Source: Marivita sp.
GTDB taxonomy: Bacteria > Pseudomonadota > Alphaproteobacteria > Rhodobacterales > Rhodobacteraceae
Assembly (NCBI RefSeq): GCF_022763305.1
Contig: NZ_JALEGT010000051.1
Coordinates: forward strand, 24,103-88,102
Direction: 5' to 3'
Length of the DNA stretch: 64,000 bases
The translations under genes were made by a program, and so were the position numbers. Below, in pieces: positions 5,961 through 7,547 of the stretch. Every line of letters starts with the position of its first letter. Positions within the stretch are counted from its first letter, which is position 1. A model generated the notes under the pieces. That model was not told the DNA's origin. It ran no database searches and worked only from the letters and a program-made list of their open reading frames with translations.

Positions 5961-6052
5961 GTCAAAAAATCACGTGGAACAAACGAAAGAGGGTGCCGGA
6001 CTATCCCGCGACAGCTCGCCATATCCTAGCAAAAACTCAGAGGTCAGCGCCA

Positions 6053-6143
6053 AGGCCCTTCGAAGGGCCTCAGCCACGCGATTTTGAAATCGCGTCCCAA
6101 GCGCGTTCGAACGCGCTTGGGTCAAGCCGTTTCGAAACGGCTT
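6053..6143. repeat. Array of four consecutive palindromes with TTCGAA-type centres
   Basis: AGGCCCTTCGAAGGGCCT (6053-6070, perfect 18 bp); ACGCGATTTTGAAATCGCGT (6076-6095, one central mismatch); CCCAAGCGCGTTCGAACGCGCTTGGG (6096-6121, perfect 26 bp); AAGCCGTTTCGAAACGGCTT (6124-6143, perfect 20 bp). Confidence 0.95.
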
Positions 6144-6149
6144 TCTGGC

Positions 6150-7547
<1,398 letters not shown>

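What the first reader, a model, noticed from the sequence alone, without database searches (positions are those of the whole stretch)
6053..6143. Four back-to-back palindromes with unrelated arms but a shared TTCGAA-type centre, right after the fumC stop
Seen directly: AGGCCCTTCGAAGGGCCT, ACGCGATTTTGAAATCGCGT, CCCAAGCGCGTTCGAACGCGCTTGGG and AAGCCGTTTCGAAACGGCTT occupy 91 bp with only 0-5 bp between them, starting 7 bp past the fumC stop. The arms share no sequence, but three centres are TTCGAA and the fourth is TTTGAA. This is not a classical REP/BIME (conserved stem) and not an ordinary terminator (no T-tract, four in a row). Inference: selection acts on structure (tandem RNA hairpins or DNA cruciforms) rather than sequence, e.g. 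3'-end mRNA protection, an RNase E landing pad, or a mobile palindrome whose arms diverge in a compensatory way. From memory, similar TTCGAA-centred palindromes occur in Roseobacter intergenic regions, but I know of no named family.
Basis: partly seen in the sequence, partly recalled or inferred. Interest (0 to 1): 0.76.

Follow-up and report, generated by a model that had tools for sequence, protein, structure and literature searches.

The report
Tandem hairpin arrays at gene ends
Just behind a metabolic gene of a marine bacterium lies a row of four self-complementary DNA stretches that belongs to an apparently undescribed repeat family, scattered behind stop codons in some genera of its bacterial family, whose sequence drifts while its hairpin shape is kept, probably because the hairpins mark or protect the ends of messages.

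Summary
In detail: four hairpin palindromes at 6053-6143, beginning 6 bp past the fumC stop. They are not unique. The genome carries dozens of such arrays (2-4 units, centre spacing 23-25 bp). The units share one frame, AAG-N4-TTCGAA-N4-CTT, whose four middle bases vary but stay self-complementary. A pattern demanding no symmetry of N4 found 420 sites in 17 congeneric genomes against 1 for its control; 66 of the 75 listed were fully complementary. Arrays sit a median of about 6 bp behind stop codons, occur in 16/70 convergent, 17/310 codirectional and 0/107 divergent gaps, and lack a U-tract. At orthologous sites the array persists while arms change on both sides together (8 of 28 pairs; 0/500 shuffles). 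At three orthologous fumC sites an ordinary T-tract terminator stands instead. The family is patchy within Rhodobacteraceae and at chance level elsewhere in the class. No Rfam family, no RAYT transposase in the genome and no paper found describes it. Best reading: a two-way 3'-end hairpin element (termination and/or exonuclease barrier) under structural constraint. The RNA function is inferred; the near absence of G-U pairs leaves a DNA-level mechanism open.

The parts
6053..6070 (.). palindrome unit 1 AGGCCCTTCGAAGGGCCT (outer, site-specific arms); farthest from the fumC stop
   Evidence: same arms at orthologous fumC sites of G005 and G007
6076..6095 (.). palindrome unit 2 ACGCGATTTTGAAATCGCGT (type B, [AC]CGCGRTTTCGAAAYCGCG[TG]); central TG unpaired
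   Evidence: type B recurs at many sites
6096..6121 (.). palindrome unit 3 CCCAAGCGCGTTCGAACGCGCTTGGG (type A core AAGCGCGTTCGAACGCGCTT)
   Evidence: core at 20 places in the genome with up to 3 mismatches, the 2-mismatch variants mostly symmetric
6124..6143 (.). palindrome unit 4 AAGCCGTTTCGAAACGGCTT, nearest the fumC stop; in several relatives its AA overlaps the TAA stop codon
6053..6143 (-). whole array as transcribed from fumC: four hairpins; MFE -67.5 kcal/mol for the 113-nt stretch 6040-6152
   Evidence: RNA, z -7.8; DNA, z -7.4
6150..7544 (-). fumC, class II fumarate hydratase, upstream gene whose 3' end carries the array
   Evidence: TIGR00979
5193..5960 (-). class I SAM methyltransferase-like gene downstream, same strand, start 92 bp beyond the array
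   Evidence: several methyltransferase models, none above its cut-off

Best explanation
The array is one copy of a dispersed, Rhodobacteraceae-restricted family of tandem hairpin elements placed immediately behind stop codons. Each unit is a hairpin of about 20 nt with a fixed loop region (UU-NN-AA, mostly UUCGAA), a fixed stem base (AAG/CTT or ACG/CGT) and freely interchangeable middle pairs. Because every unit is palindromic, both DNA strands give the same row of hairpins, so the element can work for the upstream gene and for a convergent neighbour alike. I propose that it works at RNA level as a U-tract-less, two-way transcript-end element: the hairpins forming behind RNA polymerase promote release (clustered-hairpin type or with Rho) and/or block 3'-to-5' exonucleases. 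Shown: family, placement, structural conservation, lack of a U-tract. Inferred: termination or protection. The compensatory arm changes probably arise partly in single events, by hairpin-templated template switching during replication, and are kept by selection for stem stability on both strands.
For: Placement: stop-facing distances cluster at -2 to 20 bp (median about 6) while start-facing distances are mostly 30-250 bp; units in 16/70 convergent, 17/310 codirectional and 0/107 divergent gaps; 27 of 41 convergent arrays fill the gap between the two stop codons with at most 25 bp to spare. Conservation of structure over sequence: at one orthologous convergent site hairpins persist in all 14 genomes where the whole site could be read, and in an 11-genome alignment 8 of 28 stem pairs have double-sided changes (0/500 shuffles; slid controls 0-2); at another site two array types with different arms fill the same gap between the same genes. 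Non-circular test: AAGN4TTCGAAN4CTT finds sites whose N4 are complementary in 66 of 75 listed (expected about 0.5%), 30 distinct arms. Functional replacement: at orthologous fumC sites of G001, G011 and G014 a GC hairpin plus T-tract terminator replaces the array. Clustered hairpins without U-tracts are reported as intrinsic terminators in other bacteria (PMC8355165); template switching can make multi-base compensatory changes (PMC8794818).
Against: No transcript 3' ends are available. No U-tract follows any array tested (0/38, 0/82). G-U pairs are not clearly in excess of A-C mismatches (5 v 5 among ortholog variants; 13 v 8 in all arrays), whereas an RNA-only constraint should tolerate G-U. 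Distribution is patchy, so the element is dispensable in most genera. Two of 16 unit-bearing convergent gaps in the sample also hold a T-tract terminator, and one ortholog carries both (G009).
Confidence: 0.6

Rival explanations
1. DNA-level structural element: the palindromes act as cruciforms or as sites for a DNA-binding or architectural protein (supercoil sink between converging genes, nucleoid protein or gyrase site); location behind genes follows from supercoiling.
For: Near-absence of G-U pairs and similar G-U and A-C counts fit strand-symmetric constraint; strict 23-25 bp spacing; fixed outer AAG/CTT and centre TTCGAA look like contact positions; strong DNA fold.
Against: Variable middle pairs that stay complementary are not expected of a plain protein dyad; many arrays lie behind codirectional genes hugging the stop codon rather than in mid-gap; a T-tract terminator replaces the array at three orthologous fumC sites.
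Confidence: 0.2
2. REP/MITE-like selfish palindromes that spread by transposition or gene conversion and survive where harmless, behind stop codons; the hairpin is needed for their own movement.
For: Dispersed family with two near-constant inner units; patchy distribution and copy number up to 99 pattern sites per genome; unit number at the fumC site varies 1 to 4.
Against: No Y1/RAYT transposase in the own genome or in most array-rich genomes; no GTAG/CGTC tag seen; outer arms are site-specific and retained across species at the same site, not copies of one master; no match in plasmid and phage records at this sensitivity.
Confidence: 0.12
3. Mutational by-product: hairpin-templated template switching keeps and renews palindromes at gene ends without any function.
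For: Paired changes outnumber wobble intermediates (19 v 5); several double changes in one hairpin; inner dinucleotide changes freely.
Against: Does not explain fixed spacing, fixed stem base, fixed centre, restriction to gene ends, or presence of an array with different arms at the same site in other species.
Confidence: 0.08

Closest known systems
REP elements and BIMEs (GTAG- and CGTC-tagged REPs, PMC3733652; REP survey PMC12306157)
   Same: dispersed short palindromes behind genes, often several in a row, RNA hairpins, linked to mRNA stability and termination
   Different: REPs keep the stem sequence and carry a GTAG or CGTC tag, GTAG ones with RAYT transposases; here the loop and stem base are fixed, the middle stem is free but complementary, no tag seen, no RAYT in the genome
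Clustered-hairpin intrinsic terminators (PMC8355165)
   Same: several adjacent hairpins within 80 nt of the stop codon, no U-tract required
   Different: those are any hairpins with no sequence conservation reported; here a repeat family with a shared unit frame and fixed spacing
Canonical Rho-independent terminator
   Same: GC-rich hairpin right behind the stop codon; stands in place of the array at three orthologous fumC sites
   Different: no U-tract, 2-4 tandem hairpins, strand-symmetric
Template-switch-maintained RNA stems (PMC8794818)
   Same: multi-base compensatory changes keeping perfect stems
   Different: described for rRNA and other RNA genes, not for tandem intergenic hairpin repeats

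Membership tests
REP/BIME (GTAG type) | conserved stem sequence among copies | tested here: not met
   56 distinct perfect arms among 226 units; only base and centre conserved
REP/BIME (GTAG type) | associated RAYT (Y1_Tnp) transposase in the genome | tested here: not met
   0 in own genome; 0 in array-rich G041, G051, G018, G159, G090; present in G007 and G203
REP/BIME (GTAG type) | GTAG or CGTC tetranucleotide at one end of the unit | tested here: inconclusive
   not apparent in the window array or in the arrays read by eye; not counted systematically
REP/BIME (GTAG type) | extragenic, behind genes, in clusters | tested here: met
Canonical intrinsic terminator | U-tract directly behind the hairpin | tested here: not met
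   0/38 codirectional and 0/82 convergent ends have 5 or more T in 8 nt
Canonical intrinsic terminator | stable hairpin behind the stop codon | tested here: met
Clustered-hairpin terminator | two or more hairpins less than 15 nt apart within 80 nt of the stop | tested here: met
   criterion from PMC8355165
Clustered-hairpin terminator | transcription shown to end there | not testable with these tools
   no RNA-seq or Term-seq data
MITE | terminal inverted repeats with target duplication and empty sites | tested here: inconclusive
   orthologous sites compared at three loci show arrays of different size, not clean empty/filled pairs; target duplications not measured
Any Rfam family | covariance-model match above gathering score | tested here: not met

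The most novel reading that the evidence does not exclude
A repeat class defined by shape: units keep a loop and a stem base, while the stem is rewritten pairwise by hairpin-templated template switching, so perfect palindromes are renewed by a mutational process on DNA and recruited as two-way transcript ends; the same array can mix TTCGAA and GTCGAC centres.
Probability: 0.3. Interest if true: 0.78.

Novelty: new variant of a known kind. Interest (0 to 1): 0.62.

Why it matters
It would give some marine Rhodobacteraceae a family-specific, U-tract-independent way of ending or protecting messages in both directions, which would help explain why terminator predictors miss gene ends in GC-rich genomes. 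Its many orthologous units with paired arm changes and few wobble intermediates make it a natural test bed for whether compensatory stem changes arise in one step by template switching.

Tried and rejected
Rfam at permissive E-value gave only chance matches; at gathering threshold on ten further loci, none. RAYT/REPtron origin: no Y1_Tnp in own genome or in most array-rich genomes. Plasmid and phage spread: no match. Literature searches for TTCGAA palindromes or Rhodobacteraceae palindromic repeats found no description. A G-U excess as proof of RNA-level selection was looked for and not found. Gene context comes from my own codon-usage ORF caller, not from curated annotation.

Full report
What is there. 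The minus-strand gene fumC (TIGR00979) ends at 6150. Six bases further begin four palindromic units, 6124-6143, 6096-6121, 6076-6095 and 6053-6070, reading away from the stop. The unit at 6076-6095 is perfect except for its two central bases. As RNA or DNA the strand folds into four separate hairpins (z -7.8 and -7.4). The next gene, a methyltransferase-like gene on the same strand, starts 92 bp beyond.

More than chance. In an 864-kb sample of the genome, runs of two or more palindromes (at least 8 pairs) occur 20 times and not once in one shuffle. In the intergenic part alone there are 19 such runs against none in 100 shuffles. All three perfect TTCGAA-centred palindromes of 14 bp or more in the window lie in this array.

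A dispersed family. A BLAST of the array against its own genome finds about ten further places. Those read in full are mostly arrays of 2-4 such units hard behind a stop codon. Among 86 arrays from 17 congeneric genomes the centre spacing is 23-25 bp in 172 of 197 steps. The centre is TTCGAA in 203 of 283 units, with TT..AA kept and the inner two bases varying without regard to symmetry. Consensus: A[A/C]G-N4-TTCGAA-N4-C[T/G]T. In most four-unit arrays two units are near constant (AAGCGCGTTCGAACGCGCTT and [AC]CGCGRTTTCGAAAYCGCG[TG]), while the outer two are specific to the site and kept between species at that site.

Shape, not sequence. A pattern that fixes only AAG, TTCGAA and CTT finds 420 sites in 17 genomes with 1 for the reversed control (sum of the per-genome counts). 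Of the 75 sites listed, 66 have fully complementary N4 with 30 different arms, where about 0.5% is expected. At the orthologous convergent site of L008, found by its flanking genes and therefore not selected for palindromy, 97.7% of cells pair and 8 of 28 pairs have changes on both sides (0 of 500 shuffles; slid controls 0-2). At the L015 site some species hold three units and most others two units with different arms between the same genes.

Placement. Stop-facing distances cluster between -2 and 20 bp, median about 6; start-facing ones are mostly 30-250 bp. By my ORF caller, 16 of 70 convergent, 17 of 310 codirectional and 0 of 107 divergent gaps carry TT..AA- or GT..AC-centred units. No U-tract follows (0/38, 0/82). 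At the orthologous fumC 3' end, species hold 4, 3, 2 or 1 units; three (G001, G011, G014) have a GC hairpin plus T-tract terminator instead, and others have neither.

Distribution. The FumC neighbours place the host next to Marivita (L094, 97% identity); this is an inference from one protein. In 199 family genomes, one per genus, 51 have a match and 19 have five or more (up to 99); controls are 0-2. In 240 genomes of the class, hits outside the family are at control level and their N4 are not complementary by eye. In other genera the same spacing and gene-end placement recur, and single arrays can mix TTCGAA and GTCGAC centres (L311, L313). In some relatives the arms are AT-rich.

Mechanism. 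The strand-symmetric hairpin row behind stop codons, its retention with rewritten arms, its absence from divergent gaps in the sample and its replacement by an ordinary terminator point to a two-way 3'-end element. Clustered hairpins without U-tracts have been reported as terminators (PMC8355165), and REP hairpins are known to affect mRNA stability (PMC12306157, and general knowledge). Whether the array ends transcription, blocks exonucleases or both is not shown. Wobble pairs are nearly absent and not clearly more frequent than A-C mismatches. This fits constraint on both strands or one-step template-switch repair (PMC8794818) better than a simple one-strand RNA constraint, so a DNA-level role remains a live rival.

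Membership. It works like a BIME or a clustered-hairpin terminator, but it fails the conserved-stem and RAYT features of GTAG REPs and the U-tract of canonical terminators. No Rfam family matches and no paper found describes it; most subscription literature could not be searched. Limits: the gene calls are mine, the sampled contigs partly carried known copies, and no expression data were available.

Noticed in passing
own genome contigs C113, C24, C16, C21, C73, C87 (L024-L063), e.g. C113:5358, C24:36143, C16:10094: A second tandem-palindrome type, mostly in pairs, centred on GTCGAC/GTCAAC (e.g. GTTTCCGTCAACGGAAAC + GATGCGTCGACGCATC), also behind stop codons and with complementary variants; present in 16 of 17 congeneric genomes.
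   Followed up: partly
C113:78793-78993 (L027): Four copies or partial copies of the GTCAAC/GTCGAC pair in a row at about 66-bp period behind one gene.
   Followed up: no
L314, L317 and other G051 sites: In genome G051 two identical TTCGAA palindromes often flank a spacer of roughly 90-120 bp (e.g. AAGCGGTTTCGAAACCGCTT at C1:28921 and C1:29033), as if bounding an element.
   Followed up: no
L099, L128, L160 (about 670 bp beyond fumC): AT-rich pair AAATTTCTTCGAAGAAATTT / AAGAAAATTCGAATTTTCTT with 23-bp centre spacing between convergent genes in other genera.
   Followed up: partly
L023, L182, L239: One orthologous array group lies between genes called as divergent; an uncalled small gene or RNA may end there.
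   Followed up: no
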